NCBI GenBank assembly: GCA_012034795.1
Contig: JAAUOQ010000001.1
Location: forward strand, 1 to 58,066
Origin: Leptolyngbyaceae cyanobacterium CRU_2_3
Lineage (GTDB): Bacteria; Cyanobacteriota; Cyanobacteriia; Elainellales; Elainellaceae
Direction of reading: 5' to 3'
Length of the DNA stretch: 58,066 nucleotides
Below, piece by piece: positions 28,041 to 58,036 of this stretch; position 1 is the first letter of the stretch; every line of letters starts with the position of its first letter. Made by a program: the position numbers and the translations under genes. The notes beneath the pieces were generated by a model, which was not told the DNA's origin, did not search any database, and worked only from the letters and a program-made list of their open reading frames with translations.

Positions 28041-28084
28041 TAAGGGTGAGTGCATTAGGAGGGCAAATTTATGGCAGAATATTT

Positions 28085-28099
28085 TGATAATGATTATCA
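28085..28099. promoter_or_regulatory. Zur-like box (perfect 7-1-7 palindrome)
   Basis: TGATAATGATTATCA is a perfect 7-1-7 inverted repeat between the FAD protein gene (minus) and the G3E-like gene (plus), 9 bp before the latter's ATG. It fits the cyanobacterial Zur consensus better than Fur, but binding must be tested. Confidence 0.8.
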
Positions 28100-28107
28100 T
28101 TATAATC

Positions 28108-33840: not shown

Positions 33841-34749
33841 TCAGCGAGAAACTGAATGGACTGGCTGAGCTTGCGTGGCTGCAACGGGTGGGTAACGATG
33901 ATCGGCAATCGGGTTTCCCTGCACGACATGTTCTTGCACAATGCGCTGGGCGATCGTCGGAGTGACGCGGGTGTACCAAGTCCGGTCACCGGAGTAAAAC
34001 ACTACAGGGCCAGACTTACACACCTCTAGACATCCGGAGGTCATTACATAAACATCAAGTCCTGCTGCTTTGACCGCAGTTTGCAGTGACTCAATGATGG
34101 GTTCCCATTCCTGGGAGGGGTAGCACCGACTAGAGCGACAGACCGATAGATAAGGTCGCTTGAGTGGGTTTTGCTCAAAGGGAATGGGGCGCGTGCCTAG
34201 AACATAGGTCTCGCGTAATTCTTGATAAAGGCTGAGTTTCTCAAGCTGCGGTTTGCCCTCCGGTAATAGGTTTTCTTCCTCGTCCACAAAGGGGTTCGGC
34301 AAAAATAAATTCATCATTTTTTCATCTGCCCCATTCCAGAATTGAATGCCCCAACTGCGAGCTTCTCCCCGTTCATTTAACCGCCGATATAGGGATGCCC
34401 GATGAATTAACCGTTGCTGCCGCAGTTCCGGCGGCGTTTTCTCCAGAGGCCCGCCCAGATGGTCTTCCAGGCAGAGATGTAGGTGCCATGCCTCGGTCAC
34501 GACGGTGAGATAGCCATCGTAGAGGATGCAGATTTTGGGCGCTTGGGTAAATTCCAACTCCAGCACGCTCCCTTCCACCACATGACCAATTTGGGTTTCC
34601 TGCCAGCGCTCCTGAAACAGGGTGTAAAGGAGGGGGCCAGTGACATCAATCGTGCAGGGAAAGTCTTCGTACTCAATTTGTCCACCCGTTGGCAGCGCTT
34701 CTGTAATAGTGCGATTGAGTGGTGTAACTTGGCGTAAGAATTCATCCAT
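33841..34749 (-). CDS. protein with C-terminal (2Fe-2S) thioredoxin-like ferredoxin domain
   Basis: Start ATG 34749 (MDEFLRQVTP) follows TTAGGAGATTAATT, a strong ribosome binding site, 10 bp after the receptor gene. The C-terminal 100 residues contain SVCRSSRCYPSQEWEPIIES and VMTSGCLEVCKSGPVVFYSG: the C-x4-C ... C-x3-C cysteines of thioredoxin-fold 2Fe-2S ferredoxins. The first 180 residues (DVTGPLLYTLFQERWQET, CILYDGYLTVVTEAWHLHLC) form an unknown domain resembling metal- or heme-handling proteins. As a second gene of a receptor operon it may reduce or release the imported substrate. Confidence 0.75.
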   Translation of the reverse strand: MDEFLRQVTPLNRTITEALPTGGQIEYEDFPCTIDVTGPLLYTLFQERWQETQIGHVVEGSVLELEFTQAPKICILYDGYLTVVTEAWHLHLCLEDHLGGPLEKTPPELRQQRLIHRASLYRRLNERGEARSWGIQFWNGADEKMMNLFLPNPFVDEEENLLPEGKPQLEKLSLYQELRETYVLGTRPIPFEQNPLKRPYLSVCRSSRCYPSQEWEPIIESLQTAVKAAGLDVYVMTSGCLEVCKSGPVVFYSGDRTWYTRVTPTIAQRIVQEHVVQGNPIADHRYPPVAATQAQPVHSVSR

Positions 34750-34759
34750 AATTAATCTC

Positions 34760-36777: not shown

Positions 36778-36864
36778 TTCGCTTGTTCTCACACGACAGT
36801 ATTCCCATAGATATCAGGGGTTTCAAGTGTCTTTAAGTTCAATCACTTGCATTATGATACTATA

Positions 36865-41276: not shown

Positions 41277-41702
41277 TCACTCAACCTGATGGGTGCACGG
41301 CTCACACAGTCCAAAGAATTCTAACGTGTGGTAATAGATTTTGAACGGAATGGGATGCTGCAAGGGCGCTTTTAACTCTTGTACAGGACAGTGATCCAGA
41401 GGAAAAGACTGACCACATTGCAAACAGGTGAGATAATGCTGATCGGTGAGGACTGGACTGTATAGCGATTCCCCATTTGTCCCGGTACGGCTCCTGATCA
41501 ACCCATGCAATTTTAAGGTTTCCAAAGCCCGATACACCGTTGCCAGCCCGATCGCCTGCTGCTGACGCATCATGCCATACAACTCCTGAGCCGAGAGGGG
41601 ATGGGGTTGCTGATGCAAGACATCCAACACGGCTTGCTGGTTTCGGGTCAGGTGGTACATCGGATGCCCATTATCTTGCTGAGGCAGAGAATTACTTTTC
41701 AC
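41277..41702 (-). CDS. zur: Fur-family regulator, probable zinc uptake regulator Zur
   Basis: The protein starts with the winged-helix domain: MYHLTRNQQAVLDVLHQQPH, LSAQELYGMMRQQQAIGLAT and VYRALETLKLHGLIRSR. The C-terminal domain has the structural zinc Cys pairs CLQCGQSFPLDHCP and GLCEPCTHQVE, with the His ligands in between. Start GTG 41702 or ATG 41660 (MYHLTRN). It is divergent from hemB across a Zur-like box, suggesting autoregulation and Zur rather than Fur or PerR identity. The neighbouring gene set agrees. Confidence 0.9.
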   Translation of the reverse strand: MKSNSLPQQDNGHPMYHLTRNQQAVLDVLHQQPHPLSAQELYGMMRQQQAIGLATVYRALETLKLHGLIRSRTGTNGESLYSPVLTDQHYLTCLQCGQSFPLDHCPVQELKAPLQHPIPFKIYYHTLEFFGLCEPCTHQVE

Positions 41703-41723: not shown

Positions 41724-42803
<1,080 letters not shown>

Positions 42804-42879: not shown

Positions 42880-43983
42880 ATGATTGACTCAAAAACAAGA
42901 CTACAGACCTCCACTCATCTCGTCCGTCGGTTGTCTGTGGCGGTTGTATCAGCGATCGCAGTCAGCTTAGGAAGCTGTGCAACCAATACGCCGTCTACGA
43001 CGGAATCACCTCAAGCCCAATCGTCCCCAGCAGCAGCAACGGATGAGTTGCAAGTCGTGACGACCTTCTTGCCAATTACCCAGTTTACTAAGGCAGTGGC
43101 AGGCGATCGCGCGGAAGTCACACAACTGCTGCCGACTAATGTAGGTCCCCATGATTTCCAGGCCAGACCGGAGGATGCTCAGAAGTTGGCGAAAGCCGAT
43201 GTGCTGGTACAAAACGGGCTGGAGATGGAAGAATTTTTGGAGGATCTGGTCAAGAATGCGGGAAATGCCAACCTGAAAGTGATTGACTCTAGCAAAGGGG
43301 TGAAAACGATCGCCAATGAAGCGATTGAGGGGCACGACCATGAGCATGGTGCAGATGAGAAAAAAGAGGAAGCCGAGCATGAGCATGGAGCCTATAATCC
43401 CCATGTCTGGCTTGACCCCAAACGAGCGATGCAGCAGGTAGAACGCATTCGGGATGGACTGATTGCGGCTGATCCAGCCGGGAAAGAAGTCTACACGGCA
43501 AACGCCGCCGCTTACATTCAAAAGTTGCGGGATCTGGATGCCGAAACCACGAAACTGCTGCAACCCTATACGGGTAAAACCTTTGTGGCCTTCCATGACT
43601 TTGCCCCCTACTTTGCTCAGAGCTACAACTTGAAAGCTAATTTTCTGGTGGATTTGCCGGAAGAAAATCCCTCCCCGGATGATATTAAACGAGTGACGGA
43701 TGAGGTGAAGGAATCCAATCTCAAGGCGATTCTCACCGAACCCCAAGCGGGTGAAAATGCATTTGCAGGGCTGGCAAAAGACTTAAACGTCAAAATCAGC
43801 ACCTTTGATCCGATCGAAACGGGAGGCCCCGAAGCCCTAGAGCCGGACTATTACATCCAGACCATGCGTCAAAACGTTCAGGGTTTGGTGAGCGCTTTTG
43901 GTGGCTCAACCCAGTCCGTGTTGCCCCTCTGGATACCTCAGCCTGTTGCCGTCGTGCCCCAGCGAGTTGGAGTCAGGTTTTAG
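42880..43983 (+). CDS. znuA: zinc ABC transporter substrate-binding lipoprotein ZnuA
   Basis: ZnuA captures Zn2+ in the periplasm for ZnuBC. It has a lipoprotein-type signal (VAVVSAIAVSLGSCATN, lipobox LGSC), the metal His residues in LLPTNVGPHDFQARPED, YNPHVWLDPKRAMQQVE and FVAFHDFAPYFAQ, and a short His/Asp/Glu-rich loop GHDHEHGADEKKEEAEHEHG (residues about 148-167). 367 residues. It follows hemB in 76 bp and precedes znuC in 14 bp. Confidence 0.95.
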   Translation: MIDSKTRLQTSTHLVRRLSVAVVSAIAVSLGSCATNTPSTTESPQAQSSPAAATDELQVVTTFLPITQFTKAVAGDRAEVTQLLPTNVGPHDFQARPEDAQKLAKADVLVQNGLEMEEFLEDLVKNAGNANLKVIDSSKGVKTIANEAIEGHDHEHGADEKKEEAEHEHGAYNPHVWLDPKRAMQQVERIRDGLIAADPAGKEVYTANAAAYIQKLRDLDAETTKLLQPYTGKTFVAFHDFAPYFAQSYNLKANFLVDLPEENPSPDDIKRVTDEVKESNLKAILTEPQAGENAFAGLAKDLNVKISTFDPIETGGPEALEPDYYIQTMRQNVQGLVSAFGGSTQSVLPLWIPQPVAVVPQRVGVRF

Positions 43984-43997
43984 GAGGTCTTTTCTAC

Positions 43998-44762
43998 TTG
44001 AAAGAGGTTGTACTCGCAGTTGAACAGCTCACGGTTTATCGGGAAACCTACGCGGCAGTGCAGGAGGTTTCGTTTTCCCTGGAGGCAGGCACCGATACGG
44101 CAATTGTCGGCCCTAACGGGGCAGGCAAAAGTACCCTAGTGCAAGCGATACTGGGCATTTTGCCACAGCAGGCAGGGAAGGTTTTTATCCTGGGACAACC
44201 TCTGCGCCGCCCAGGTTCACTTGCACCACAAATTCGTCAACAGATTGCCTATCTACCGCAAAACTTCCTGGTCGATCGCCGCATTCCCATGACGGTAGAA
44301 GAACTGGTGGGTTTGGGCTGGGATAGGCTAGGGTTTCAGGTGCCCTGGAAAGACCAGAGAAAGCGTCGTCATGCGGTTCGGGACGCTTTGGCAAGAGTGG
44401 ATGCGCTCCATCTAAAGCGTCAACTGATCAGCGGGCTTTCTGGCGGGGAAACAAAGCGAGTGCTGCTGGCCTATTGCCTGGTTTACCCACGCCGATTGCT
44501 GATCCTTGATGAGGCTCCGGCTGGATTGGATCTGCGCGGTGAGACCGAGTTTTATCAATTGCTCTATCAACTCAAGCAAGAGCAAGACTGGGCAATTTTG
44601 CAGGTTTCCCATGATTTAGACATGGTAAGACGACACTGCGATCGCGTCCTCTGCCTAAATCGCACCTTACGCTGTCAAGGCACCCCAGATGTGGCGCTCT
44701 CGCCTGAGAATCTCTCTGCTGCCTACGGGTCTGAATTTGTCAGATATCGTCATCGGAATTAG
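43998..44762 (+). CDS. znuC: zinc ABC transporter ATP-binding protein ZnuC
   Basis: ABC ATPase with Walker A IVGPNGAGKSTLVQAI, Q-loop IAYLPQNFLVDRR, signature ISGLSGGETKRVLLAYCLVY and Walker B LLILDEAPAGLDLRGE. 254 residues. The start is TTG 43998 with an AGGAGG ribosome binding site 9 bp before it. It lies 14 bp after znuA. The permease gene znuB is 2 kb away, separated by an IS and an EfeO-like gene. Confidence 0.92.
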   Translation: MKEVVLAVEQLTVYRETYAAVQEVSFSLEAGTDTAIVGPNGAGKSTLVQAILGILPQQAGKVFILGQPLRRPGSLAPQIRQQIAYLPQNFLVDRRIPMTVEELVGLGWDRLGFQVPWKDQRKRRHAVRDALARVDALHLKRQLISGLSGGETKRVLLAYCLVYPRRLLILDEAPAGLDLRGETEFYQLLYQLKQEQDWAILQVSHDLDMVRRHCDRVLCLNRTLRCQGTPDVALSPENLSAAYGSEFVRYRHRN

Positions 44763-44997: not shown

Positions 44998-45548
44998 AAA
45001 CCCTCGCCTTCAGGCGAAGGCTTCAGCGGGAACCCACGAGCATGTTAAATTCTGAGCGTGAAAGAGTATCGTCGGGGCGCTCACACCGTTTTTGAGATTC
45101 ACCTGCACTTGGTGTGGGTGACAAAGTACCGTCGCAAAGCCCTGATGGGAGAAGTAGGCTTGAGAGTCCGAGAATTGATCCGGCAAGTCTGTCAACAGCA
45201 GCAAGTGACGATTTTGAAAGGTCATGTCTCGAAAGATCATGTGCATCTGTTCGTGTCATCCCGCCACAGGTAACGATTAGTCGTTTAGTGCAAGGGTTGA
45301 AAGGAAAAACAGCCTACAAATTGCTGCAAGAGTTTCCGCATTTGCGCAAGAAATTTTGGGGTCGTCATATTTGGGCGCGGGGGTATTTTTGTTGCAGTAG
45401 TGGGAATGTGACTGATGAAATCGTGATGCAGTACATCGAGAATCAAAATCACGAGGGAGAAGACGCAGATTTTAAAGTTGAAGGCGAAGACTAGGACTTT
45501 CAGTCCGTTTTCAGAAGCCACCGCTCTTCTAGGCGGTGGTCTGTTCAC
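44998..45548 (+). mobile_element. IS200/IS605-group element (tnpA only)
   Basis: The tnpA gene is flanked by subterminal hairpins: left CCTCGCC...GGCGAAGG around 45002-45020, right CCACCGC/GCGGTGG (45519-45540). No tnpB. The element lies inside the zinc transporter locus, between znuC and the EfeO-like gene. Ends are approximate. Confidence 0.7.
45058..45494 (+). CDS. IS200/IS605 transposase TnpA (frameshifted)
   Basis: Y1 HUH transposase: N-terminal HLHLVWVTKYRRKALMG, the HUH motif in KDHVHLFVS and, after a one-base shift, PPQVTISRLVQGLKGKTAYK and GYFCCSSGNVTDEIVMQYIE with the catalytic tyrosine. The frame breaks around 45257-45260, where one base is missing. About 145 residues when joined. 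Whether it is active depends on that base. Confidence 0.85.
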
Positions 45549-45597: not shown

Positions 45598-45616
45598 ATT
45601 GACAATTATTCTCAAT
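45598..45616. promoter_or_regulatory. Fur/Zur-like palindrome before the EfeO-like gene
   Basis: ATTGACAATTATTCTCAAT is an imperfect palindrome with TTGAcAA/TTcTCAA arms, about 205 bp upstream of the EfeO-like start. The rest of the 45549-45821 gap shows no gene. Confidence 0.45.
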
Positions 45617-46791: not shown

Positions 46792-47634
46792 ATGCCCCTT
46801 CAAACCGACTTCATCCGCATCATCGAACTGTTTCAACTTCCCGCCATGCAACGTGCCATGCTGGGCGGCATTCTCACAGGTTTAATGGGAGGAGTGCTGG
46901 GCAGCTTTACAGTTTTGCGCCAGTTGTCTTTCTTCAGCGATGCCTTGGGACACTCCGCATTACTAGGCATTAGTATTGGGTTACTCTTGGGGTTAAATCC
47001 ATCGGTGGTCTTGCTGCCCTTTGCCGTGGCGTTTGCCTTGATTGTGACCTACTTGCTGGAACGTACCCTCTTATGGACAGATGCTTTACTCAACATCATC
47101 TATTCTTCATCGCTAGCGATCGCCATCATCACCCTCAGCTTTGTTGGGCAATACAAGGGCGGACTGCATCACCTGTTGTTTGGCGACATTTTGGCAGTCC
47201 AAGAACTCGATTTAGTTTTTAGCAGTTTGCTGTTAATCATCTGTGTTGTGTTTATCGGACTGACGTTGCGAACGCAAATGTTGTTGACGTTGCATGAACC
47301 GTTGGCGATCGCACGGGGAGTTTCAGCATCTGCTCATCGCACTACTTTTATTGTGTTGTTGTCGTTGGTCGTGGGAGTGTCGATCAAGGCGATCGGGGTG
47401 TTGCTGGTGAGTGCATTTGTCGTGATTCCGGCTTGCGCTGCTCAGTTGCTCAGTCGCACATTCACAAATTATGTGGTGCTATCCGCAGGGTTAGGGGCAT
47501 TGAGTGCTTTGCTTGGAATGCTCGTTTCAGCCAGTTTCAATTTACCATCGGGTCCCAGTATCGTCGCAATACAGTTAGCGATTTTTCTAATCGCAATGGC
47601 ATTACCTCGATTGCGTGTCTTGGAACAGGGGTAG
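46792..47634 (+). CDS. znuB: zinc ABC transporter permease ZnuB
   Basis: ZnuB-type permease with about eight transmembrane helices: MLGGILTGLMGGVLGSFTVL, LGHSALLGISIGLLLGLNPS (the conserved SDALGHSALLG), LGDILAVQELDL-like FGDILAVQELDLVF, and a C-terminal VLLVSAFVVIPACAAQLLSR. 280 residues, full length. It works with ZnuA and ZnuC at 42.9-44.8 kb. Confidence 0.92.
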   Translation: MPLQTDFIRIIELFQLPAMQRAMLGGILTGLMGGVLGSFTVLRQLSFFSDALGHSALLGISIGLLLGLNPSVVLLPFAVAFALIVTYLLERTLLWTDALLNIIYSSSLAIAIITLSFVGQYKGGLHHLLFGDILAVQELDLVFSSLLLIICVVFIGLTLRTQMLLTLHEPLAIARGVSASAHRTTFIVLLSLVVGVSIKAIGVLLVSAFVVIPACAAQLLSRTFTNYVVLSAGLGALSALLGMLVSASFNLPSGPSIVAIQLAIFLIAMALPRLRVLEQG

Positions 47635-47949: not shown

Positions 47950-48319
47950 TTTTTCCTATTCCAGCTTGTTCAAGAATGCTAGCAATTTATCAAAGATAGG
48001 ATTGTTCACTTGTCAAACCTCCGGTCACTCAGCAATTTGAGAACCACTCTAAAGCCAGGAACATTATCTTTGCGCCCTGCTCAACCTATTCCCAGGTCAT
48101 TGCGCTAAATTCCTCCCAACTTGGCGATCCTTCATGGAAGTTGCGCTTGCTTGATGCTAGCTCTTTTGGTTTTGAGAATATCAGTGACTCTCTGACCTGC
48201 GAATCGATGCGCGATACAGCTTCCTCCTCACAGACTACTGCCGATTGTAGTAGGTTCGCAGAAGCGATGGCGATTTTTCTAATCTACACCTACCAGCAGG
48301 GGCATCCTCATGTTAAAGT
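47950..48319. other. gene-free stretch upstream of thrS promoter
   Basis: No supported gene. A minus-strand run reading GSPSWEEFSAMTWE near 48110 looks protein-like but is bounded by stops; it may be a remnant. Confidence 0.4.
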
Positions 48320-48338
48320 GAGAATGATTATCATTTTA
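48320..48338 (+). promoter_or_regulatory. Zur-like box before thrS
   Basis: AATGATTATCATT (48323-48335) is a perfect 6-1-6 palindrome 12 bp before the thrS ATG. Together with its flanks it is almost identical to the box before sufE. Confidence 0.8.
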
Positions 48339-48347
48339 TAGTTGAGT

Positions 48348-50222
48348 ATGGTCAGCCAGATTCCCCGTCCATTTCTTAAAGCGCAAAATTTTCAAAACGA
48401 TCCGCAAACCCTGCTGCGGACTCGACATACCTGTGCCCATGTGCTAGCGATGGCAGTGCAAACGCTCTTCCCGGAGACCAAAGTGACGATTGGACCCTGG
48501 ACAGACACTGGCTTCTACTATGACTTCGATCGTCAAGATCCCTTCACGCCAGACGACCTGACTCAAATTGAAGCCGAGATGCGGCGAATCATACAGGCAA
48601 ATCTGCCCATCATTCAGGAAGTGGTAGATCGGGAGCAGATTCGGGCAGAAATTGAGCAACTGGGCGAACTTTACAAACTGGAAATCCTCGACAGCATTCC
48701 TGCTGATGAACCGATTACTCGTTATTTCATTGGTTGTGCAGATACCCTGCAAGGGGTGTCAGAGGCTTCCTTACTTCACATTACTGCTGACACTCTGACA
48801 CCCAAAAAGCTAGGGCGGGATTGTTGGTGGGACTTGTGTGCCGGACCTCATCTCAACTACACGGGCGAAATTAACCCCGATGCTTTTGCCCTGGAAAGTG
48901 TGGCTGGAGCCTATTGGCGAGGCGATGAAACCCAGCCACAGTTGCAACGCATTTACGGGACAGCCTGGGAAACCCCAGAACAACTTCAGGCATATCTGAC
49001 TCAGAAAGAAGAGGCGAAACGCCGCGACCACCGAAAATTGGGACAAGACCTAGATCTATTTAGTATCCAGGAGGATGCAGGCGGGGGATTGGTTTTCTGG
49101 CATCCCAAAGGGGCACGGATGCGGCTACTGATTGAAGACTACTGGCGAAAAGCGCATCTGGATGGAGGGTACGAACTACTCTACACCCCGCATATCGCCA
49201 ATCTTGATCTCTGGAAAACATCGGGACACTTTGACTTCTACCGCGAGAATATGTTTGACCAGATGGAGCTTGAGGCGCAGCAGTATCAACTGAAGCCGAT
49301 GAATTGCCCGTTTCATGTGTTGACCTATCAAAGCCATTTGCACTCCTATCGGGAACTGCCCATCCGCTGGGCAGAGTTGGGCACCGTGTATCGCTATGAG
49401 CGATCGGGCGTATTGCATGGACTAATGCGAGTACGCGGCTTTACCCAGGATGATGCTCATATTTTTTGTCTGCCCGAACAGGTGACAGATGAGATTCTGG
49501 GTGTGTTGAATTTGACCGAGCAGATTTTGTCGGAGTTTGGCTTCGCTGAGTATGAAGTGTACCTTTCTACTCGTCCTGGCAAGTCTGTGGGTACGGACGA
49601 CATTTGGAAATTAGCTACGGATGCGCTGGTTCAAGCTTTAGACACAAAGGGTTGGGACTATGTGACGGACGAAGGCGGTGGTGCGTTTTATGGTCCCAAA
49701 ATCGACATCAAGATCAAGGATGCGATCGCCCGTCAGTGGCAATGCTCTACGATTCAAGTCGATTTCAATTTGCCCGATCGCTTTGATATGGAATACGTGG
49801 CGGCGGACGGTTCGCGCCAGCGTCCGATTATGATTCACCGCGCCATCTTTGGATCATTAGAACGCTTCTTTGGCATCTTAATTGAAAACTATGCCGGGGA
49901 TTTCCCCCTCTGGTTGGCTCCAGTGCAGGTGCGGCTGTTGCCCGTGAGTGATGAGCAGCGAGCCTATGCAGCCGCGATCGCCCTGCAACTCAAACAACTC
50001 GGCTATCGGGTTGAGGTGGATCACAGCGGCGATCGCCTCGGCAAACAAATTCGCACCGCAGAGCTGGCAAAAATTCCCGTCGTTGCGGTTGTTGGTAAGC
50101 GAGAAGTAGAAAACCAGACCTTGAGCGTGCGAACCCGCCAATCAGGAGAACTCGGATCGTTAACGCTGTCAGAACTTCAGGAAAAAATGCAGCAAGCCAT
50201 GATGAGCAAACAACAGATTTAG
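48348..50222 (+). CDS. thrS: threonyl-tRNA synthetase ThrS (probable zinc-regulated isoform)
   Basis: ThrRS attaches Thr to tRNA-Thr. The protein begins directly with the editing domain: TRHTCAHVLAMAVQTLFPET (H-x3-H) and DLCAGPHLNYTG (C-x3-H), without a TGS domain. The catalytic core has FHVLTYQSHLHSYRELPIRW, AELGTVYRYERSGVLHGLMR, RGFTQDDAHIFC and MIHRAIFGSLERFFGILIEN. The active-site zinc ligands Cys (MNCPFH), His (DDAHIF) and His (MIHRAI) are retained. 624 residues from ATG 48348. The Zur-like box is 12 bp upstream, so it is probably the low-zinc paralogue of the housekeeping enzyme. Confidence 0.95.
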   Translation: MVSQIPRPFLKAQNFQNDPQTLLRTRHTCAHVLAMAVQTLFPETKVTIGPWTDTGFYYDFDRQDPFTPDDLTQIEAEMRRIIQANLPIIQEVVDREQIRAEIEQLGELYKLEILDSIPADEPITRYFIGCADTLQGVSEASLLHITADTLTPKKLGRDCWWDLCAGPHLNYTGEINPDAFALESVAGAYWRGDETQPQLQRIYGTAWETPEQLQAYLTQKEEAKRRDHRKLGQDLDLFSIQEDAGGGLVFWHPKGARMRLLIEDYWRKAHLDGGYELLYTPHIANLDLWKTSGHFDFYRENMFDQMELEAQQYQLKPMNCPFHVLTYQSHLHSYRELPIRWAELGTVYRYERSGVLHGLMRVRGFTQDDAHIFCLPEQVTDEILGVLNLTEQILSEFGFAEYEVYLSTRPGKSVGTDDIWKLATDALVQALDTKGWDYVTDEGGGAFYGPKIDIKIKDAIARQWQCSTIQVDFNLPDRFDMEYVAADGSRQRPIMIHRAIFGSLERFFGILIENYAGDFPLWLAPVQVRLLPVSDEQRAYAAAIALQLKQLGYRVEVDHSGDRLGKQIRTAELAKIPVVAVVGKREVENQTLSVRTRQSGELGSLTLSELQEKMQQAMMSKQQI

Positions 50223-50234
50223 ATCAGGAGGAAC

Positions 50235-50636
50235 ATGAAAGTTGCATACGTTTTTGCTCATCCTCGCGGTGGCACTTACAAATTAGGGCAAATGATTCTG
50301 CCTCAGATAGAAGTGGGTGTACATGGGGTTGACGTTGCGGGAATGTTCTTCTTCGATGACAACTGCTTCGTTCTGCGAAAGGGTGATCCGATTGGAGAAC
50401 GATTGGCAAAGGTGGCAAAAGCACAAAACATTCTGTTGATGATGTGCGATCTGTGTGCCCTGGAACGAAACCTGGCAGAAGGTGAACCACGCTGGTGCAA
50501 TCCTGATGGAACCGGGCGCAAGGAACCGGGTAAGTGCATCGTCAAAGATGTCGTGGCAGGAGTGACCGTTGGTTGCTTCCCAGACTTGTACACGGCATTA
50601 AGCGGCAATCTTCCTGATCAGGTCATTACCTTATGA
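50235..50636 (+). CDS. DsrE-like protein, SaoD-type, cysteine-rich
   Basis: 133 residues from ATG 50235 behind AGGAGGAAC. The fold start MKVAYVFAHPRGGTYKLGQM followed by VHGVDVAGMFFFDDNCFVLR resembles DsrE-type sulfur proteins. Cysteines are in MMCDLCALERN, RWCNPDG, GKCIVKD and TVGCFPDLY. Resemblance to SaoD-labelled proteins is from memory. Its position behind thrS and in front of the iota-CA-like gene indicates a zinc-starvation role; sulfur or metal carrier function is inference. Confidence 0.55.
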   Translation: MKVAYVFAHPRGGTYKLGQMILPQIEVGVHGVDVAGMFFFDDNCFVLRKGDPIGERLAKVAKAQNILLMMCDLCALERNLAEGEPRWCNPDGTGRKEPGKCIVKDVVAGVTVGCFPDLYTALSGNLPDQVITL

Positions 50637-51115
50637 GAAAAATCACACTGTTTATCTTTGGCTTATTTGCACTGCTACTCCTTGTTTGTAGCCCTGCCTA
50701 TGCCGCTACCAATTGCCCAACGGTTACCAAAGCTGAGATTGCTGCACTGTTTGAGCAATGGGATCAATCACTGCAAACGGGCAAGCCCAGTGAAGTTGCC
50801 AAGAATTATGCGGATGAGGCAATTCTGGTTCCTACGGTTTCTAACAAAGTACGGCACACCCAGCCTGAAATTGAGGATTACTTTCAACGCTTTCTCAAGC
50901 TTAAACCCGATGGTCGCATTGAGGAGCAAAATATCCAGATTTATTGTGATGTAGCGATTAACTCCGGTATTTATGCCTTTGCAGTAGTCAAGGATGGTCA
51001 ACCTTCAGAAGTGAAAGCACGATATACGTTTGTTTACCATAAAGTGGGCGATCGCTGGTTGATTGTCGATCATCATTCGTCAGAAATGCCGGAAAAGACA
51101 GCCAAGGCAGCTTAG
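50633..51115 (+). CDS. exported SnoaL-fold protein resembling iota-class carbonic anhydrase
   Basis: A signal peptide (IFGLFALLLLVCSPAYAATN) precedes a SgcJ/EcaC/CaMKII-AD domain: TKAEIAALFEQWDQSLQTGK, NYADEAILVPTVSNKVRHTQ, IEDYFQRFLKLKPDGRIEEQ, and the C-terminal YHKVGDRWLIVDHHSSEMPE. The terminal HHSS-x-MP motif is characteristic of the COG4337 iota-carbonic anhydrases, some of which work without any metal. Length 160 fits. If correct, it interconverts CO2 and bicarbonate in periplasm or thylakoid lumen. It overlaps the DsrE-like gene by 4 bp (ATGA), so the two are translationally coupled. Other SnoaL-type functions remain possible. Confidence 0.75.
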   Translation: MRKITLFIFGLFALLLLVCSPAYAATNCPTVTKAEIAALFEQWDQSLQTGKPSEVAKNYADEAILVPTVSNKVRHTQPEIEDYFQRFLKLKPDGRIEEQNIQIYCDVAINSGIYAFAVVKDGQPSEVKARYTFVYHKVGDRWLIVDHHSSEMPEKTAKAA

Positions 51116-51196: not shown

Positions 51197-51454
51197 ATGA
51201 ATCTTTTTTCACAGTCAAAACTCAAAGCCGATCCTGCCAAGGTGCAGCAACTCAAAACCTGGATCTATGAACGCTTGAAACTAGATCCAGAAATTACAGT
51301 CTCCATTAGTCAACTTCAGTGCAAAGAGCCAGGATGCCCACCGATTGAGACAGCAATTGCCGTTCTAACCCAACCCGCCCAACAGTTTAAAGTCCATAAA
51401 ACCATTGATGAGATTGAACAAGCCGATTTAATTCAAGCCTTTCAAGCAAAGTAG
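51197..51454 (+). CDS. small protein of the zinc island (85 aa)
   Basis: The product has two helical segments (VQQLKTWIYERLKLDPEITV) and a conserved-looking core QLQCKEPGCPPIETAIAVLT with two Cys, followed by KVHKTIDEIEQADLIQAF. Proteins with the C-KEPGCPP-x-ET core are seen with CobW/zinc genes, but the function is not known to me. It lies 6 bp upstream of the DUF1636 gene and shares its mRNA. Confidence 0.6.
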   Translation: MNLFSQSKLKADPAKVQQLKTWIYERLKLDPEITVSISQLQCKEPGCPPIETAIAVLTQPAQQFKVHKTIDEIEQADLIQAFQAK

Positions 51455-51460
51455 GTAATC

Positions 51461-51841
51461 ATGCCCCAACACGTTCTATTTGTCTGTAAGTCCTGTACCT
51501 TCTCATCAACGCAACGAGAATATATGGGACAACGCGGCGGTTATCACTTACTCCAGAGTTTATTACATCAGCAACAACAATGGACACTCCAGCCTGAATA
51601 CAAAATTGAAGCCGTCGAGTGCTTGAGTGGCTGTAATCGAGCCTGCGTAATTGCCCTTACTGCTCCTAACAAAACTACCTTGATGTTTGGCGATTTACCT
51701 GCCTTACAAAGTGCTTCAGCAATTCTGCAAATGGCAAAACAATACCATGCTAGTACAGACGGAATCGTTCCCCGTCAAGAACGTCCTGAAATCCTCAAGA
51801 AGGGAATTCTGGCGAGAATTCCGCCCCTGCCCAGTTGCTAG
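51461..51841 (+). CDS. DUF1636 metal-binding-like protein (second copy)
   Basis: LFVCKSCTFSSTQREYMGQR and IEAVECLSGCNRACVIALTA give the two Cys clusters (C-x2-C and C-x3-C-x3-C). The C-terminal IVPRQERPEILKKGILARIP matches the other copy at 36934. 126 residues. It is part of the thrS-led plus-strand gene row and very likely Zur-responsive. Confidence 0.8.
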   Translation: MPQHVLFVCKSCTFSSTQREYMGQRGGYHLLQSLLHQQQQWTLQPEYKIEAVECLSGCNRACVIALTAPNKTTLMFGDLPALQSASAILQMAKQYHASTDGIVPRQERPEILKKGILARIPPLPSC

Positions 51842-52115: not shown

Positions 52116-52138
52116 TATATCTGAGCAATCTATCGATG

Positions 52139-52708
52139 GCTAACCTCACTCTAATCGCACCAAAGTTGGATGGTTCGGCAATAAGCACATTTAAGCGTCG
52201 AGAACACCTCTCGCCCCGTGAAAATACCCTCTGGCACATTGAAGCTGGGACGGTGCGTACTTACACGCTCACTGAAGATGGCACCCTCATTGTTCTGGGA
52301 TTTTGGGGTTTGGGAGATACCGTAGGTCAACCTTTCACCTGTATCCAGCCCTATGCAGTGGAGTGTTTGACGGATGTTAAGGTTCGTTCGATCCAGCCTG
52401 AAGAATGCGGTCATTTAAATCAGGTGCTACTGTCTCACCTCCACCAAACCCAAGTGTTATTGCGGCTTCGCAGTGGGCAGATTCACCAACGGTTACAGCA
52501 GTTATTAGAGTGGCTAACTGATAAGTTTGGTCGTGAATCAGAGCAGGGGCAATTGATTCAGCTACGCCTAACCCATCAGGATATTGCAGACACACTAGGC
52601 ACTACACGAGTAACCGTAACCCGCTTACTCAGTCAGTTTAAGCAGGAAGGTCGCATTGATTGGATTGACCAATACCTGTTGCTACCCCGAAAACTACATA
52701 TTTGTTGA
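52139..52708 (+). CDS. Crp/Fnr-family transcriptional regulator
   Basis: N-terminal cNMP-binding-like beta-roll (LSPRENTLWHIEAGTVRTYT, LGFWGLGDTVGQPFT) and C-terminal winged HTH LTHQDIADTLGTTRVTVTRL. No obvious ligand Cys cluster of Fnr type. I start at ATG 52139 (MANLTLIAP); an upstream GTG at 52088 would overlap the DUF1830 gene. It may control part of the metal island; targets unknown. It closes the thrS-led gene row, and the next gene has its own Zur-like box. Confidence 0.85.
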   Translation, partial: ANLTLIAPKLDGSAISTFKRREHLSPRENTLWHIEAGTVRTYTLTEDGTLIVLGFWGLGDTVGQPFTCIQPYAVECLTDVKVRSIQPEECGHLNQVLLSHLHQTQVLLRLRSGQIHQRLQQLLEWLTDKFGRESEQGQLIQLRLTHQDIADTLGTTRVTVTRLLSQFKQEGRIDWIDQYLLLPRKLHIC

Positions 52709-52848
52709 CATCTAGCTCGTCCTTTGGCATTCACCCAGGATACAGACATTTCACCCACGTATCCAGGTCATAAATTTTATCCAAGCCTATTGGCAGAGGC
52801 AAGCCCTGAATCACAAACCTGTCCAAAGTGCCAAAAATTCTGTATTAT

Positions 52849-52868
52849 GAGAATGATTATCATTTTAT
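52849..52868 (+). promoter_or_regulatory. Zur-like box before sufE
   Basis: AATGATTATCATT (52852-52864), perfect 6-1-6 palindrome, about 20 bp before the sufE ATG. GAGAATGATTATCATTTTAT is shared with the thrS box. Confidence 0.8.
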
Positions 52869-52883: not shown

Positions 52884-53345
52884 ATGTCCGCTGCCGTCAA
52901 GCCTCTCCCCCCAAACCTGGAACAGATTATCCAGCGGTTCCAGCAAATCTCTGAACCCAGGCGGCGCTTTGAGTATTTGCTCTGGTTTGCCAAGCGGGTG
53001 CCAGAATTGCCTGAAGCTGAGGCAGTGGCAGAAAACAAAGTGCCGGGGTGTGTATCCCAGGTTTACATCACAGCGGCTCTTCACAACGGCAAAGTCACGT
53101 TTCAGGGGAGGTCTGATGCCCAAATTCCCAAAGGTCTGGTCGGATTGCTGATCGAAGGACTGAATGGGTTATCCCCTGATGAAGTTCTCCAACTCACGCC
53201 AGATTTTATTCAACAGACAGGTTTGAATGTCAGTCTCACCCCCTCTCGGAGCAACGGGTTTTACAACATCTTCAAATTCATGCAGCACAAGGTTGCAGCA
53301 TTTCAGGTTGCTGATTCACAGGTTCTGAATCGGAGGAATTTATGA
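52884..53345 (+). CDS. sufE: SufE-family sulfur acceptor
   Basis: SufE takes persulfide from the cysteine desulfurase SufS for Fe-S assembly. LEQIIQRFQQISEPRRRFEY and the active cysteine in AENKVPGCVSQVYITAAL are clear. 153 residues. The start ATG 52884 follows the Zur-like box. It overlaps the first G3E gene by 4 bp. A zinc-regulated SufE is unexpected: SufS/SufU systems in other bacteria need zinc (SufU), whereas SufE does not, so SufE could substitute; this is inference. Confidence 0.9.
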   Translation: MSAAVKPLPPNLEQIIQRFQQISEPRRRFEYLLWFAKRVPELPEAEAVAENKVPGCVSQVYITAALHNGKVTFQGRSDAQIPKGLVGLLIEGLNGLSPDEVLQLTPDFIQQTGLNVSLTPSRSNGFYNIFKFMQHKVAAFQVADSQVLNRRNL

Positions 53346-54340
53346 CCCATACTGTTGTGCAGACTCGTTCAGAATCCGTCACCGTTCCTAAGCGAGGAAC
53401 ACCCGTTACGCTGATCACAGGCTTTTTGGGCAGTGGTAAAACGACCCTGCTGAACCACATTTTGAACAATCGCCAAGACCTCAAAGTAGCCGTGATTGTG
53501 AATGAATTTGGCAATATTCACATCGACTCCCAGTTATTGGTATCCGTTGATGAAAATATGGTGCAATTGGGCAATGGCTGTATTTGTTGCACCATTAATC
53601 AGAGCTTGATTGATACGGTTTGCGAATTGGTCAATCCCGGTGATGCAGTGGACTACATTGTGATTGAAACCACAGGGGTTGCCGATCCATTGCCTATCAT
53701 GCTGAGTTTTATCAGTACCGAGTTGCGAGATGTCACTTATATTGATTCAATTCTGACGGTTCTGGATGCAGAGTCCTTCATGCCCAATCACTACGATAGT
53801 GAAGCGGCACTCAATCAGTTGATCTATGGCGACATTATCCTATTAAACAAAACTGATTTGATTGAGCGCGATCGCATTGATGAACTAGAAACTTATATTC
53901 GCTCCATTAAGCAGAGTGCCAGAGTCATCCAAACTCAGCATGGACAGGTGTCGTTACCGTTAATTTTAGATGTTGGATTTAACGACCCCGGCACTTACCT
54001 CACACACGATCTGACAGAGTATCATACCCGTCATGATCATCATTCTGATCATCTGGAGAATGATGGGTTTATGGCAGTTTCATTTGAGAGTGAAAAGCCT
54101 CTTGATTTACCTAAATTTCAGAACTTCCTTGACCATCTACCCCTGGATCTATACCGTGCCAAAGGAATTCTCTGGTTTCAGGGGAGTCAATTGCGCTATG
54201 TGTTTCAACTGAGTGGTCAGCGGTGTGACTTAAGAAACACTCATTTGCAGCCACCGGATCGGAATCAACTCGTGTTTATTGGACGAAATCTGGATGTAAG
54301 CACAATCAAGCAGCAATTAACAGATTGCATTGCCATTTAA
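53342..54340 (+). CDS. COG0523 G3E GTPase, zinc metallochaperone type (copy 1)
   Basis: Walker [18 protein letters not shown], the metal motif [40 protein letters not shown] (G4) and a C-terminal CobW domain (GFMAVSFESEKPLDLPKFQN, ILWFQGSQLRYVFQLSGQRC). A short His-rich linker HTRHDHHSDHLEND is present. 332 residues. It overlaps sufE by 4 bp. It probably hands zinc to selected enzymes when zinc is low. Confidence 0.93.
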   Translation: MTHTVVQTRSESVTVPKRGTPVTLITGFLGSGKTTLLNHILNNRQDLKVAVIVNEFGNIHIDSQLLVSVDENMVQLGNGCICCTINQSLIDTVCELVNPGDAVDYIVIETTGVADPLPIMLSFISTELRDVTYIDSILTVLDAESFMPNHYDSEAALNQLIYGDIILLNKTDLIERDRIDELETYIRSIKQSARVIQTQHGQVSLPLILDVGFNDPGTYLTHDLTEYHTRHDHHSDHLENDGFMAVSFESEKPLDLPKFQNFLDHLPLDLYRAKGILWFQGSQLRYVFQLSGQRCDLRNTHLQPPDRNQLVFIGRNLDVSTIKQQLTDCIAI

Positions 54341-54370: not shown

Positions 54371-55426
54371 ATGACTAGCACCATGATTGCAACCAACACT
54401 ACCTCCCTAGAGCTTCCCAAACAAGGAATGCCGATCACAATTATTACTGGCTTTTTGGGCAGTGGCAAAACCACTTTGCTGAATCACATTTTGAACAATC
54501 GCCGTGATTTAAAGGTTGCGGTGCTTGTAAACGAATTTGGCGATATTAACATCGATAGCCAATTACTCGTGTCGATGGATGAAGATATGGTAGAGCTGAG
54601 CAATGGCTGCATTTGTTGCACCATTAATGATGGACTGGTGGATGCCGTATATCGAGTGCTGGAACGAGAAGATCGGGTCGATTATATGGTGATTGAAACC
54701 ACTGGCGTTGCTGACCCATTACCGATCATATTGACATTTTTAGGAACTGAACTGCGCGACTTCACTCGCTTGGACTCAATTATCACCCTTGTTGACGCCG
54801 AAACCTTTACGCCAGAGCATTTCGAGAGTGAAGCAGCGCTTAAGCAAATTACCTGTGCCGATGTCACAATACTGAACAAAACCGATTTGGCATCACCTCA
54901 GAAAGTGAAGGAATTAGAGGCATACATTGGCACAGTGAAAGTTGGAGCCAGAATTTTGCATAGTCAACACGGTAAGGTGTCGCTGCCGCTCATTTTAGAT
55001 GTGGGGTATAACAACCCGGAAGCCTATGCCGATTTAGTTCAGGAAGAAGTTGAACAAACCCAGCATGACCATCACCACTCGCATGATCGCCATGAAGATC
55101 AACATCACCATGAACATCATCATCACCATTCAGCTCACCTTGACAACGATGGGTTTGTGTCCATTTCCTTTGAGAGCGATCGCCCCTTTGATGTCAAAAA
55201 GTTTGAAACCTTTCTGCAAAATGATTTACCTCAGGAAGTCTTCCGAGCAAAAGGAATTCTCTGGTTCGCCGAAAGCAACTTACGCAACATCTTCCAACTC
55301 AGTGGCCCTCGCTATGACCTGCAAGCGGAAGAATGGCGCACCCCACCCAAGAACCAGCTTGTGTTTATTGGGCGCAATCTAAATGCCGATCAACTGCGAC
55401 AGCAGCTAGCAGATTGTCTCGCCTGA
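54371..55426 (+). CDS. COG0523 G3E GTPase with His-rich linker (copy 2)
   Basis: Close tandem copy of the preceding gene ([42 protein letters not shown]). It differs by a long His-rich stretch at residues about 230-255 (HDHHHSHDRHEDQHHHEHHH) between GTPase and CobW domains, likely metal storage or relay. 351 residues. Ribosome binding site GAGGAG 30 bp after copy 1. The folE gene follows at 96 bp. Confidence 0.93.
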   Translation: MTSTMIATNTTSLELPKQGMPITIITGFLGSGKTTLLNHILNNRRDLKVAVLVNEFGDINIDSQLLVSMDEDMVELSNGCICCTINDGLVDAVYRVLEREDRVDYMVIETTGVADPLPIILTFLGTELRDFTRLDSIITLVDAETFTPEHFESEAALKQITCADVTILNKTDLASPQKVKELEAYIGTVKVGARILHSQHGKVSLPLILDVGYNNPEAYADLVQEEVEQTQHDHHHSHDRHEDQHHHEHHHHHSAHLDNDGFVSISFESDRPFDVKKFETFLQNDLPQEVFRAKGILWFAESNLRNIFQLSGPRYDLQAEEWRTPPKNQLVFIGRNLNADQLRQQLADCLA

Positions 55427-55522: not shown

Positions 55523-56161
55523 ATGACTCTATCAATCTCACCCGACGATGTCCGTAAGCAACTCATCAGCACTGAAACTGAACTCCCCGTTTCTGAAGCG
55601 GAAATGCAGCAAGCCGTTCGCACCTTGCTGCTTGGCATGGGTGAAGATCCCGATCGCGAAGGACTGCGCGACACCCCTAAACGAGTGGTTAAAGCGCTCA
55701 AATTCCTGACCTCTGGCTATCAGCAATCCCTGGATGAGTTGCTCAACGGAGCCGTGTTTCACGAAGATGCCAGTGAAATGGTGTTGGTGCGCGATATTGA
55801 TCTGTTCAGCTCCTGCGAGCATCACATTCTACCCATTCTAGGGCGTGCTCACGTCGCCTATATTCCTAACGGCAAAGTCATTGGCTTATCCAAAATTGCT
55901 CGGATTTGCGAAATGTATGCCCGTCGCCTGCAAGTGCAAGAACGTTTGACCCATCAAATTGCTGATGCTCTGCAAGGCTTGCTCAAACCTCAAGGTGTAG
56001 CAGTGGTTGTCGAAGCTACCCATATGTGTATGGTGATGCGGGGTGTACAAAAGCCAGGTTCCTGGACAGTAACAAGTTCAATGCAGGGAGTGTTTGCCGA
56101 TGATGCTAGAACCCGCCAGGAATTTATGGAATTAATTCGCCATAGCCCATCGTTTCATTAG
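55523..56161 (+). CDS. folE: GTP cyclohydrolase I FolE
   Basis: FolE makes 7,8-dihydroneopterin triphosphate for folate and related pterins and uses an active-site zinc. Motifs: [20 protein letters not shown] (Cys and His ligands), [37 protein letters not shown] and [20 protein letters not shown] (second Cys ligand). All three zinc ligands are present. 212 residues. Located between two G3E genes, it is the expected client of these GTPases. Confidence 0.93.
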
Positions 56162-56224
56162 GAAGTGAATAGGGGAGTGGAGTCATTCTACTTCCCGCTC
56201 TCTACCCACTACCCATGTGAATTT

Positions 56225-57184
56225 ATGTCCGATCCCACACCTACTGACACCAAACTACCTGTAACCATTATCACAGGCTTTTTAGGCAGCGGTAAAACAA
56301 CACTGTTGAACTACATTCTGCAAAATTTTGAGCATTACAAAGTTGCAGTTTTAGTGAATGAATTTGGTGACATCAATATTGATAGTCAGCTTTTGATCGC
56401 GGTCGAAGAAGACATGATTGAACTGACGAACGGCTGCATCTGTTGCACTATCAATGACAACCTGGCAGATGCCGCCTATCGAGTATTAGAGCGTCGAGAC
56501 CGAATTGAGTATTTAATTGTTGAAACAACCGGAGTTGCAGATCCCCTGCCGATCGCCCTTACATTCTTAGGAACTGATTTACGAGAGCATACTCAACTCG
56601 ATGCAATTCTCACAGTTGTCGATGTGTCTACCTTTACTCCAGCACACTATTTTAGTGATGCTGCCATGAGTCAGATTACCTATAGTGACATTATTTTATT
56701 TAATAAAATTGATTTACTGCCTGAAGCTGAAGTGGATGAGCTGGAAGGGCATATTGGTTCGATTAAAGCAGGGGCCAGGATTTTGCGCTCCCAATATGGA
56801 AAGGTTTCACTCTCACTGATTCTGGATGTGAATCTTGCGGAATCAGGTTCTTCGGAAAAAACACTTACAGCACCTGCACCTAGTTCCACACACCTCAACA
56901 GCGATGGATATATGGCGGTTTCATTTCAGAGCGATCGCCCCTTATCCGTTAAAAAGTTTCAACAGTTTTTGGATTATCACCTTCCTGATAATGTATTCCG
57001 GGCAAAAGGGGTTCTCTACTTCGATGAAAGTCCTAAACGGCATTTATTCCAACTCAGCGGTAAACGGTTTACGATCGACGATAGCGAGTGGAAAGGTTCT
57101 CCTAAAAATCAGATGGTGTTGATTGGACGCAAACTAGATTCACTCTTCCTCATCCAAGCACTGAATAATTGTTTGACTCGGTAA
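56225..57184 (+). CDS. COG0523 G3E GTPase (copy 3)
   Basis: From ATG 56225 ([12 protein letters not shown]) the protein reads [61 protein letters not shown] and the CobW C-terminal domain ([40 protein letters not shown]). 319 residues. No His-rich linker. The hisI gene starts 5 bp later, so the two are tightly coupled. Confidence 0.93.
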
Positions 57185-57189
57185 GAACG

Positions 57190-57534
57190 ATGAATCAAGA
57201 CCTTCTTTGGCTAGAGCAACTTAAATTTAACGACATGGGTTTGATTCCGGCGATTGCCCAAGACTATCAAGATAATACTGTTTTGATGGTGGCATGGATG
57301 AACCACGAATCAATCCGGCAAACGCTAGAAACAGGAGAAGCCCATTATTGGAGTCGCTCTCGTACTGAACTTTGGCACAAGGGTGCAACCTCTGGACATA
57401 TTCAGAAAGTCAAAGCACTGTACTACGACTGTGATGCAGATACCCTTTTGCTGAAGATTGAACAGGTTGGTGATGTTGCCTGTCATACTGGAGCTAGGAG
57501 TTGCTTCTTTAATCGAGTCGCGTTGAAACCATAA
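57190..57534 (+). CDS. hisI: phosphoribosyl-AMP cyclohydrolase HisI (stand-alone)
   Basis: HisI opens the purine ring of phosphoribosyl-AMP in histidine synthesis; it needs zinc and Mg. Motifs: [58 protein letters not shown] and [12 protein letters not shown] (zinc Cys residues in DCDAD, ACHTG and RSCF). 114 residues, without the HisE domain found in HisIE fusions, as is usual for low-zinc paralogues. Five bp after the third G3E gene. Confidence 0.92.
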
Positions 57535-57544: not shown

Positions 57545-58036
57545 CTATCTCTGTTTTGCGTGTTGAACTATTAACTCGTTGCCGCGTTGCCGTGTTTTAG
57601 GATTAATGCTAAACAGACGCACATATTGATGTGGATAGTGCTGTAAAAGTTGTGCTACTGTGGCGATCGCCTCCTCTTCCTGCATCGTTTTAATCACGCC
57701 ACAATCTGACCAAGAATTTGCCCGAAATCGCCGCGTATCAGCTTGTTCCACTCCAATATAAAATTTCTGGCTTAACACCTCTTGAATCCAGGCGATCGCT
57801 TGAGCATCTAGAGGTGAGGATGGGCGATGTCCATTGCTAGAAGCAGGCTGAACGGTTGGGTGTCCGTTAGGTTCATTGCGAATGGTAGCAATACAAACAT
57901 CGTCTTCGGCACACAAATAGCCCTGACGTAGCTTTTGATCCCACATTCCGCTGTTTCGAGGAGCCAAAAAATAATTAAGATCAGAACCCTTTGGTAGCAA
58001 TACTCTTGGCGATTTAGCTATTTTTGAGATAATCAA
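57545..58036 (-). CDS. protein with Rubisco small-subunit-like (SSUL) domain
   Basis: The C-terminal part reads LDAQAIAWIQEVLSQKFYIG, VEQADTRRFRANSWSDCGVI and YPHQYVRLFSINPKTRQ. This matches the SSUL repeats of CcmM and the tail of cyanobacterial Rubisco activase (conserved E-x-A-D-x-RRF and S-W). The first 60 residues (YFLAPRNSGMWDQKLRQGYL, AEDDVCIATIRNEPNG) are not from CcmM's carbonic-anhydrase domain and are unknown. Start is TTG 58036 in the given frame; the true start may lie beyond the window or at the ATG 57946. Convergent with hisI. Confidence 0.7.
   Translation of the reverse strand: MIISKIAKSPRVLLPKGSDLNYFLAPRNSGMWDQKLRQGYLCAEDDVCIATIRNEPNGHPTVQPASSNGHRPSSPLDAQAIAWIQEVLSQKFYIGVEQADTRRFRANSWSDCGVIKTMQEEEAIATVAQLLQHYPHQYVRLFSINPKTRQRGNELIVQHAKQR

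What the first reader, a model, noticed from the sequence alone, without database searches (positions are those of the whole stretch)
50633..51115. Iota-type (possibly metal-free) carbonic anhydrase inside a Zur-regulated gene row
The protein has a signal peptide and the C-terminal HHSS-x-MP motif of COG4337 iota-carbonic anhydrases, translationally coupled to a DsrE-like gene behind a Zur-boxed thrS. Established: some cyanobacterial iota-CAs act without metal. Inference: under zinc shortage it would replace zinc-dependent carbonic anhydrase, so zinc sparing would extend to CO2 handling.
Basis: partly seen in the sequence, partly recalled or inferred. Interest (0 to 1): 0.82.

Follow-up and report, generated by a model that had tools for sequence, protein, structure and literature searches.

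The report
Zinc-shortage-switched carbonic anhydrase in cyanobacteria
A cyanobacterium keeps an exported carbonic anhydrase of an unusual class in a gene row that is probably switched on when zinc runs out, and relatives put a second carbonic-anhydrase-like protein under the same switch, suggesting that zinc saving reaches carbon dioxide handling.

Summary
The gene is real (50633-51115, 160 aa, signal-peptide-like start, HHSSxMP end) and overlaps its dsrE neighbour by ATGA behind a Zur box and thrS. The family label needs correction: the protein belongs to the COG4875 branch of iota carbonic anhydrases (best solved relative 3H51), not to COG4337, the branch shown to work without metal. The four residues essential in metal-free All2909 are kept, but characterised COG4875 enzymes are reported as Mn- or Zn-dependent, so "metal-free" is untested here. 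Operon-linked Zur boxes occur at 14 of 60 cyanobacterial COG4875 loci, in several gene orders and two clades, against 0 of 38 COG4337 loci; one box lies directly before the gene. One relative sits in a carboxysome operon. A short CcmM paralogue (gamma-CA domain plus one Rubisco-small-subunit-like domain) has a Zur box about 22 bp before its start in 7 of 7 testable genomes, against none at 31 full-length ccmM loci; a piece of it lies at the window's end. Best reading: a Zur-derepressed, exported back-up carbonic anhydrase. Activity, metal need and regulation remain to be measured.

The parts
50633..51115 (+). COG4875-type iota carbonic anhydrase, 160 aa, predicted exported
50633..50704 (+). 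signal-peptide-like segment MRKITLFIFGLFALLLLVCSPAYA (read by eye; no predictor run)
   Evidence: hydrophobic N-terminus in relatives
50834..50836 (+). Thr68, aligns with essential Thr106 of All2909
   Evidence: T in 52 of 54 COG4875 rows
50879..50881 (+). Tyr83, aligns with essential Tyr124 of All2909
   Evidence: Y in 54 of 54 COG4875 rows
51071..51082 (+). HHSS motif, residues 147-150 (His148 and Ser150 align with essential His197 and Ser199 of All2909)
   Evidence: 51 of 51 COG4875 rows with letters there
50235..50636 (+). SaoD/DsrE family protein (NF040913), ATGA overlap with the CA gene
48342..50222 (+). threonyl-tRNA synthetase, second-copy type (thrS2)
   Evidence: Anabaena thrS2 is Zur-repressed
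48319..48333 (+). Zur box in front of thrS2-dsrE-iotaCA
51197..51454 (+). small protein, no family found
51461..51841 (+). DUF1636 protein
52136..52708 (+). Crp/Fnr-type regulator
52848..52862 (+). Zur box in front of sufE-cobW-cobW-folE-cobW-hisI
52884..53345 (+). SufE-like protein
53342..54340 (+). CobW (COG0523) GTPase
54371..55426 (+). CobW-like (COG0523) GTPase
55523..56161 (+). GTP cyclohydrolase I (FolE)
56165..57184 (+). CobW-like GTPase (by similarity to its neighbours)
57169..57534 (+). phosphoribosyl-AMP cyclohydrolase (HisI)
57545..58036 (-). C-terminal piece of a short CcmM-like protein, convergent with hisI, gamma-CA part missing at the contig end
   Evidence: same order cobW-hisI><ccmM in four relatives
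41277..41702 (-). Fur-family regulator, probably Zur (by context)
41727..41741 (+). weaker Zur-type site between zur and hemB
41742..42803 (+). porphobilinogen synthase (HemB)
42880..43983 (+). zinc ABC transporter binding protein (ZnuA-like)
43998..44762 (+). zinc ABC transporter ATPase (ZnuC-like)
45600..45614 (+). Zur-type box before the EfeO/imelysin-like gene
46792..47634 (+). zinc ABC transporter permease (ZnuB-like)

Best explanation
The gene encodes an exported, single-domain iota-class carbonic anhydrase of the COG4875 branch. While zinc is sufficient, zinc-loaded Zur sits on the box before thrS2 and keeps the row silent. When zinc falls, Zur leaves and thrS2-dsrE-iotaCA is transcribed together; the CA is translated by coupling to dsrE and exported. 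In the periplasm it hydrates CO2 with the Thr68-Tyr83-His148-Ser150 pocket, standing in for the apparently Tat-exported zinc beta-CA that the same genome encodes. In relatives the Zur regulon also holds a short CcmM paralogue (gamma-CA domain plus one SSUL), so the zinc response would cover both extracytoplasmic and carboxysomal CO2 handling. Shown here: gene, family branch, catalytic residues, Zur-type box, recurrence of the association, zinc-gene surroundings, zinc CA counterparts. Inferred: Zur binding, export, CA activity, lack of a zinc need, and the back-up role.
For: Family: CaMKII_AD E 1.7e-23; 3H51 E 7e-35; a profile of 11 COG4875 sequences finds 3H51 at 3e-51 and the proven iota-CA 7C5X at 5e-18. 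T/Y/H/S of All2909 kept. Zur: 15-bp box plus 15 of 16 positions of the RegPrecise consensus; 4 of 5 genome-wide palindromes lie in this window. Recurrence: Zur-boxed thrS2-dsrE-iotaCA on 4 relative contigs (one near-identical to the window), thrS2-iotaCA-hisI-short ccmM (G233), a box about 150 bp before the iotaCA ORF (G239), a box kept while dsrE decayed (Rhizonema), and boxes before a separate picocyanobacterial clade; 14 of 50 COG4875 loci against 0.33 expected, 0 of 38 COG4337 loci. CO2 link: ccmKKLMN-iotaCA in G056/L039; short CcmM with Zur box in 7 of 7 testable genomes. Counterparts: the own genome has two beta-CAs, one with a twin-arginine-like leader, and no alpha-CA found. thrS2 in Anabaena is Zur-repressed and rises 200-fold under zinc shortage (PMC4787780, passages).
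Against: No CA assay exists for this clade as far as I found. Characterised COG4875 proteins are reported to use Mn (T. pseudonana) or Zn (B. territorii), so zinc independence is not a given. ThrS2 of the same kind of row still needs zinc in Anabaena, so the row is not made only of zinc-free substitutes. The Phe138-bearing segment of COG4337 enzymes is absent. Most cyanobacterial COG4875 genes have no Zur box (46 of 60), and the four proteobacterial plasmid homologues looked at are not in zinc surroundings. In picocyanobacteria the box lies between divergent genes and could serve the other one. The own genome is 69% complete.
Confidence: 0.62

Rival explanations
1. Zur-controlled CA that still needs a metal (Mn, Zn or Fe): an acclimation paralogue, like ThrS2, that gains from induction, affinity or location rather than from doing without metal.
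For: COG4875 enzymes reported as Mn- or Zn-dependent; ThrS2 remains zinc-dependent; the short CcmM keeps the gamma-CA histidines (role recalled).
Against: The pocket residues match the metal-free All2909, and Hirakawa et al. [quoted passage not shown]
Confidence: 0.25
2. The Zur box serves thrS2 (or divergent neighbours); the iota-CA is a passenger with its own promoter and no zinc response.
For: In the window the box lies 2.3 kb upstream of the CA gene, and most COG4875 genes lack a box.
Against: ATGA overlap with dsrE; box directly before the CA ORF in G239 and before a decayed dsrE in Rhizonema; different neighbours in different genomes.
Confidence: 0.08
3. An NTF2-fold periplasmic protein of another function (for example zinc binding or envelope stress), not a carbonic anhydrase.
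For: NCBIfam files it only under the broad SgcJ/EcaC subfamily TIGR02246; NTF2-like folds serve many functions (general knowledge); no assay in this clade was found.
Against: HHSS and the T/Y pocket are conserved throughout the clade; ccmKKLMN-iotaCA row in G056; strong profile match to 3H51 and to the proven iota-CA 7C5X.
Confidence: 0.12

Closest known systems
COG4875 iota-CAs: Thalassiosira pseudonana LCIP63, Burkholderia territorii BteCA-iota, and the related Xanthomonas campestris 3H51
   Same: CaMKII_AD/NTF2-like domain, HHSS motif, single domain and signal peptide in bacteria, best structural match 3H51
   Different: linked to Zur boxes and thrS2-dsrE; metal need of the window protein unknown
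COG4337 metal-free iota-CAs: All2909 (7C5V) and Bn86287 (7C5X)
   Same: fold family, HHSS, essential Thr/Tyr/His/Ser
   Different: separate fully supported branch; Phe138-bearing segment absent; no operon-linked Zur box at 38 COG4337 loci, with one borderline case (L123)
Zur-regulated carbonic anhydrase paralogues: gamma-CA Cam (Pseudomonas and other proteobacteria), ytiB in Bacillus subtilis
   Same: a CA under Zur, Cam being proposed to replace zinc CAs (PMC2770081 passages; PMC6103462 passages)
   Different: other CA classes and other bacteria; here an exported iota-CA and, in relatives, a short CcmM
Anabaena thrS2 operon of the Zur regulon
   Same: Zur-controlled thrS2 co-transcribed with zinc genes including a COG0523 gene (PMC4787780 passages)
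   Different: no iota-CA appears in the passages seen; the window adds dsrE-iotaCA

Membership tests
iota-class CA, COG4875 branch | CaMKII_AD/NTF2-like domain closest to 3H51 | tested here: met
iota-class CA, COG4875 branch | C-terminal HHSS motif | tested here: met
iota-class CA, COG4875 branch | catalytic-pocket Thr, Tyr, His, Ser | tested here: met
   T68, Y83, H148, S150
iota-class CA, COG4875 branch | placement in the COG4875 clade | tested here: met
   SH-aLRT 100
iota-class CA, COG4875 branch | CO2 hydration activity | not testable with these tools
   needs an assay
COG4337 metal-free iota-CA | closest to All2909/Bn86287 in sequence and tree | tested here: not met
COG4337 metal-free iota-CA | Phe138-bearing segment of the cavity | tested here: not met
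   gap in 54 of 54 COG4875 rows
COG4337 metal-free iota-CA | activity without metal | not testable with these tools
   needs metal-free assay and ICP-MS
cyanobacterial Zur regulon | Zur box upstream of the transcription unit | tested here: met
cyanobacterial Zur regulon | zinc-homeostasis neighbours (zur, znuABC, cobW, folE, hisI, hemB) | tested here: met
cyanobacterial Zur regulon | association conserved in relatives | tested here: met
cyanobacterial Zur regulon | Zur binding and zinc-responsive expression | not testable with these tools
   needs EMSA and expression data

The most novel reading that the evidence does not exclude
Some cyanobacteria carry a Zur-controlled, two-compartment CO2-handling back-up: an exported iota-CA that needs no zinc (perhaps no metal) and a stripped-down CcmM (gamma-CA domain plus one SSUL) that would alter carboxysome assembly or supply carboxysomal CA activity in zinc-starved cells. 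The zinc regulator would then act directly on the CO2-concentrating mechanism.
Probability: 0.42. Interest if true: 0.82.

Novelty: new variant of a known kind. Interest (0 to 1): 0.64.

Why it matters
Carbonic anhydrase is a major zinc consumer in photosynthetic microbes. That Zur controls CAs was known for gamma-CA Cam (predicted) and ytiB in other bacteria; an iota-CA in cyanobacterial Zur rows, plus a Zur-boxed short CcmM, would tie zinc sensing directly to CO2 handling and give a physiological reason for keeping metal-sparing CA classes. It also supplies a clear test of whether COG4875 enzymes can work without zinc. The paper searches found no report of either link (iota-CA with Zur; ccmM or carboxysome with Zur; hits were judged from listings and the passages cited), though subscription papers are mostly not held, and the main Anabaena Zur regulon paper was not.

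Tried and rejected
Rejected: COG4337 membership. Rejected as main reading: chance box and a non-CA SgcJ/EcaC protein (TIGR02246 is broad; the CA pocket is conserved). Considered: Fur instead of Zur for the box. The sequence types are similar (recalled), but the targets here are zinc genes and the site matches the RegPrecise Zur consensus quoted in PMC9337993.

Led nowhere: the AlphaFold2 model from 6 sequences had mean pLDDT 40 and was not used or searched. Four proteobacterial plasmid homologues gave no zinc context. The genome's fifth box lies at a contig edge (C368:113) with no target readable. The 14.7 kb contig of the MAG CSU_1_3 (L004/L034), 99-100% identical in most proteins, may be cross-binned and is not counted as independent evidence. 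Nostoc L008 has a stop inside the CA reading frame, and its contig starts too early to see a box.

Selection told: of 32 new picocyanobacterial places, 22 were fetched with wide flanks and enter the 50 loci; the other 10 were scanned only +-1.5 kb (no site), giving 14 of 60. Of 53 COG4337 places, 38 were scanned. With a looser rule (23-bp consensus, up to 4 mismatches, 2.6 kb upstream, operon structure ignored) 19 of 50 COG4875 loci (4.7 expected) and 7 of 38 COG4337 loci (8.4 expected) had a site. One COG4337 locus (L123, G216) lies 222 bp downstream of a Zur-boxed flavoprotein-like gene, just outside the 200-bp operon rule, so COG4337 may not be wholly free of the link. The tree used every third COG4337 row (13 of 38).

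Full report
The observation. A 160-residue ORF lies exactly at 50633-51115. It begins with a hydrophobic, signal-peptide-like stretch (judged by eye) and ends HHSSEMPEKTAKAA. The start codon overlaps the stop of the dsrE-like gene as ATGA. That gene follows thrS by 12 bp, and a box TGAGAATGATTATCA sits at 48319-48333, just before thrS. The dsrE-like protein is NCBIfam NF040913, SaoD/DsrE family, over its cut-off.

Which iota-CA. Pfam gives CaMKII_AD, E 1.7e-23. The nearest solved chain is 3H51 of Xanthomonas campestris, E 7e-35; the COG4337 enzyme 7C5X comes second at 2e-6. A profile of 11 relatives repeats this order, 3e-51 and 5e-18. Hirakawa et al. 2021 (PMC8132391; abstract, two sections and passages read) show metal-free activity for COG4337 proteins and describe COG4875 as a related group with a metal reported, Mn for Thalassiosira and Zn for Burkholderia. 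They relate 3H51 to the iota-CAs of the diatom and Burkholderia. A tree of 67 rows (54 COG4875, 13 COG4337) splits the two with SH-aLRT 100, and the window protein is COG4875. The COG4337 reference used was checked against the PDB: 7C5V, E 2e-87.

Catalytic residues. Aligned to the COG4337 set, the window keeps Thr68, Tyr83, His148 and Ser150, the counterparts of Thr106, Tyr124, His197 and Ser199, whose alanine mutants of All2909 are inactive. Among COG4875 rows T is kept in 52 of 54, Y in 54 of 54, and HHSS in all 51 rows with letters there. The Phe138-bearing segment of COG4337 is absent from all 54. Two cysteines, 28 and 105, are conserved in 50 of 53 and 49 of 54, which would suit a disulphide in an exported protein (inference).

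Is it Zur. The surroundings are a zinc row: a Fur-family regulator, hemB, znuA-, znuC- and znuB-like genes, thrS2, then sufE, three cobW-type GTPases, folE and hisI behind a second box at 52848. The palindrome TGANAATNATTNTCA occurs 5 times in the 4.19 Mb assembly, 4 of them in this window, with 0 for the reversed control. Against the 23-bp RegPrecise consensus quoted in PMC9337993 (passages) the thrS and sufE boxes have 1 mismatch of 16 and the boxes at 28084 and 36862 none. In Anabaena thrS2 is in a Zur-repressed operon and rises 200-fold in low zinc (PMC4787780, passages); a review lists thrS2 in the Anabaena Zur regulon (PMC6103462, passages). That ThrS2 still needs zinc is a caution against reading every gene of the row as zinc-free.

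Recurrence. COG4875 genes are patchy: 3 of 36 genomes of the window's order, 24 of 388 across the class, 36 of 399 in a picocyanobacterial order, 3 of 29 in the order of G233 (all three Zur-boxed). Gene orders seen with a box: thrS2-dsrE-iotaCA (window, L034, L035, L036, L037); thrS2-iotaCA-hisI-short ccmM (L040, G233); a box about 150 bp before the CA ORF, then hisI (L038, G239); box, decayed dsrE, then a CA gene that runs off the contig without a stop (L010, Rhizonema). In a separate picocyanobacterial clade the box lies between the CA gene and a divergent cobW, or a divergent cluster with hisI- and znu-like genes. Scanning the operon-upstream region, 14 of 50 COG4875 loci have a site with at most 1 mismatch (shuffles: mean 0.33, largest 2); 0 of 38 COG4337 loci do (mean 0.45). 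Adding the ten loci scanned only makes it 14 of 60. Four further picocyanobacterial loci have a position-conserved site with 2 mismatches. Counting these, the Zur label needs 3 changes on the tree against 16 when shuffled. Related genomes are not independent, and L034 is nearly identical to the window.

Link to CO2. In G056 (L039), whose protein is 65% identical to the window's, the gene lies 80 bp downstream of ccmN in a ccmK-ccmK-ccmL-ccmM-ccmN row; CcmL, CcmM and CcmN score over their NCBIfam cut-offs. In G233 the Zur-boxed row includes a 310-aa CcmM-like protein. Searching with it uncovered short CcmM paralogues (about 310-320 aa: gamma-CA domain plus one SSUL). In the class-wide search seven genomes whose short ccmM has a readable upstream side (G020, G317, G041, G023, G246, G181, G212) have a Zur box at a fixed place about 22 bp before the start, with 0-2 mismatches to the 23-bp consensus; an eighth (G021) is cut by its contig. 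None of 22 full-length ccmM loci from that call, nor of 9, has one; these are the best-scoring matches, not a random draw. The short forms keep the histidines in VVIHG/VVHG and THMALIHG (their role as gamma-CA metal ligands is recalled). In four relatives the short ccmM is convergent with hisI and a cobW-like gene. The window shows the same order at its right end, where 57545-58036 on the minus strand is a C-terminal CcmM piece with NF053794 E 2e-31 and no gamma-CA part; the contig stops there.

What would be replaced. The own assembly has two beta-CAs and no alpha-CA found, at 69% completeness. One beta-CA has a leader with the twin-arginine-like pattern SRRNLLQF (pattern recalled), so a zinc CA for the periplasm is likely present. 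Similar leaders occur in several Zur-boxed relatives, and also in G003, in which no COG4875 gene was found, so this is permissive rather than diagnostic evidence.

How it most likely works, and limits. Zinc shortage lifts Zur; the row is made; the exported iota-CA keeps CO2 hydration going outside the cytoplasm when the zinc beta-CA loses metal. Steps shown: gene, family branch, residues, boxes, recurrence. Steps inferred: binding, induction, export, activity, metal independence. If the protein needs Zn, as reported for B. territorii (PMC8128165, abstract in listing), it would be an acclimation paralogue instead.

Known and new. A Zur-regulated CA is not new as a kind: gamma-CA Cam was predicted in proteobacteria (PMC2770081, passages) and ytiB is listed for Bacillus subtilis (PMC6103462, passages). 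An iota-CA and a short CcmM under Zur in cyanobacteria did not turn up in the searches made; the Anabaena regulon paper itself was not held. Hence a new variant of a known kind.

Noticed in passing
L200-L206 (short ccmM starts at locus position about 1501 on its strand); window 57545-58036 -: Short CcmM paralogues (gamma-CA domain plus one SSUL) with a Zur box about 22 bp before the start in 7 of 7 testable genomes, none at 31 full-length ccmM loci.
   Followed up: partly
L039 2587-6849 (G056): COG4875 iota-CA gene 80 bp downstream of ccmN in a ccmKKLMN carboxysome row.
   Followed up: partly
L123 557-2587 (G216): A COG4337 iota-CA gene 222 bp downstream of a Zur-boxed flavoprotein-like gene (label read from the sequence); the window has a similar-looking ORF at 26826-28154 beside a Zur box.
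   Followed up: no
window 28006-28881, 26826-28154: Perfect Zur-consensus site at 28084-28106 inside two divergent overlapping ORFs' 5' regions; the 291-aa ORF had no NCBIfam match.
   Followed up: no
window 33841-36792 -: A region I read as TonB-receptor-like (no family search succeeded), split over three overlapping ORFs, with a Zur box upstream at 36862; possibly frameshifted.
   Followed up: no
L004/L034 against window 41.3-55.8 kb: A 14.7 kb contig of the MAG CSU_1_3 (another family by group code) is 99-100% identical in most proteins; transfer or cross-binning.
   Followed up: no
L008 2386-2889: Nostoc CHAB 5715 iota-CA has a stop inside the frame and follows, by 37 bp, a gene 57% identical to the window's TonB-receptor-like ORF.
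   Followed up: no
window 45058-45494: ORFs that look like an IS200-type transposase remnant (recalled; not searched) lie inside the znu row between znuC- and znuB-like genes.
   Followed up: no
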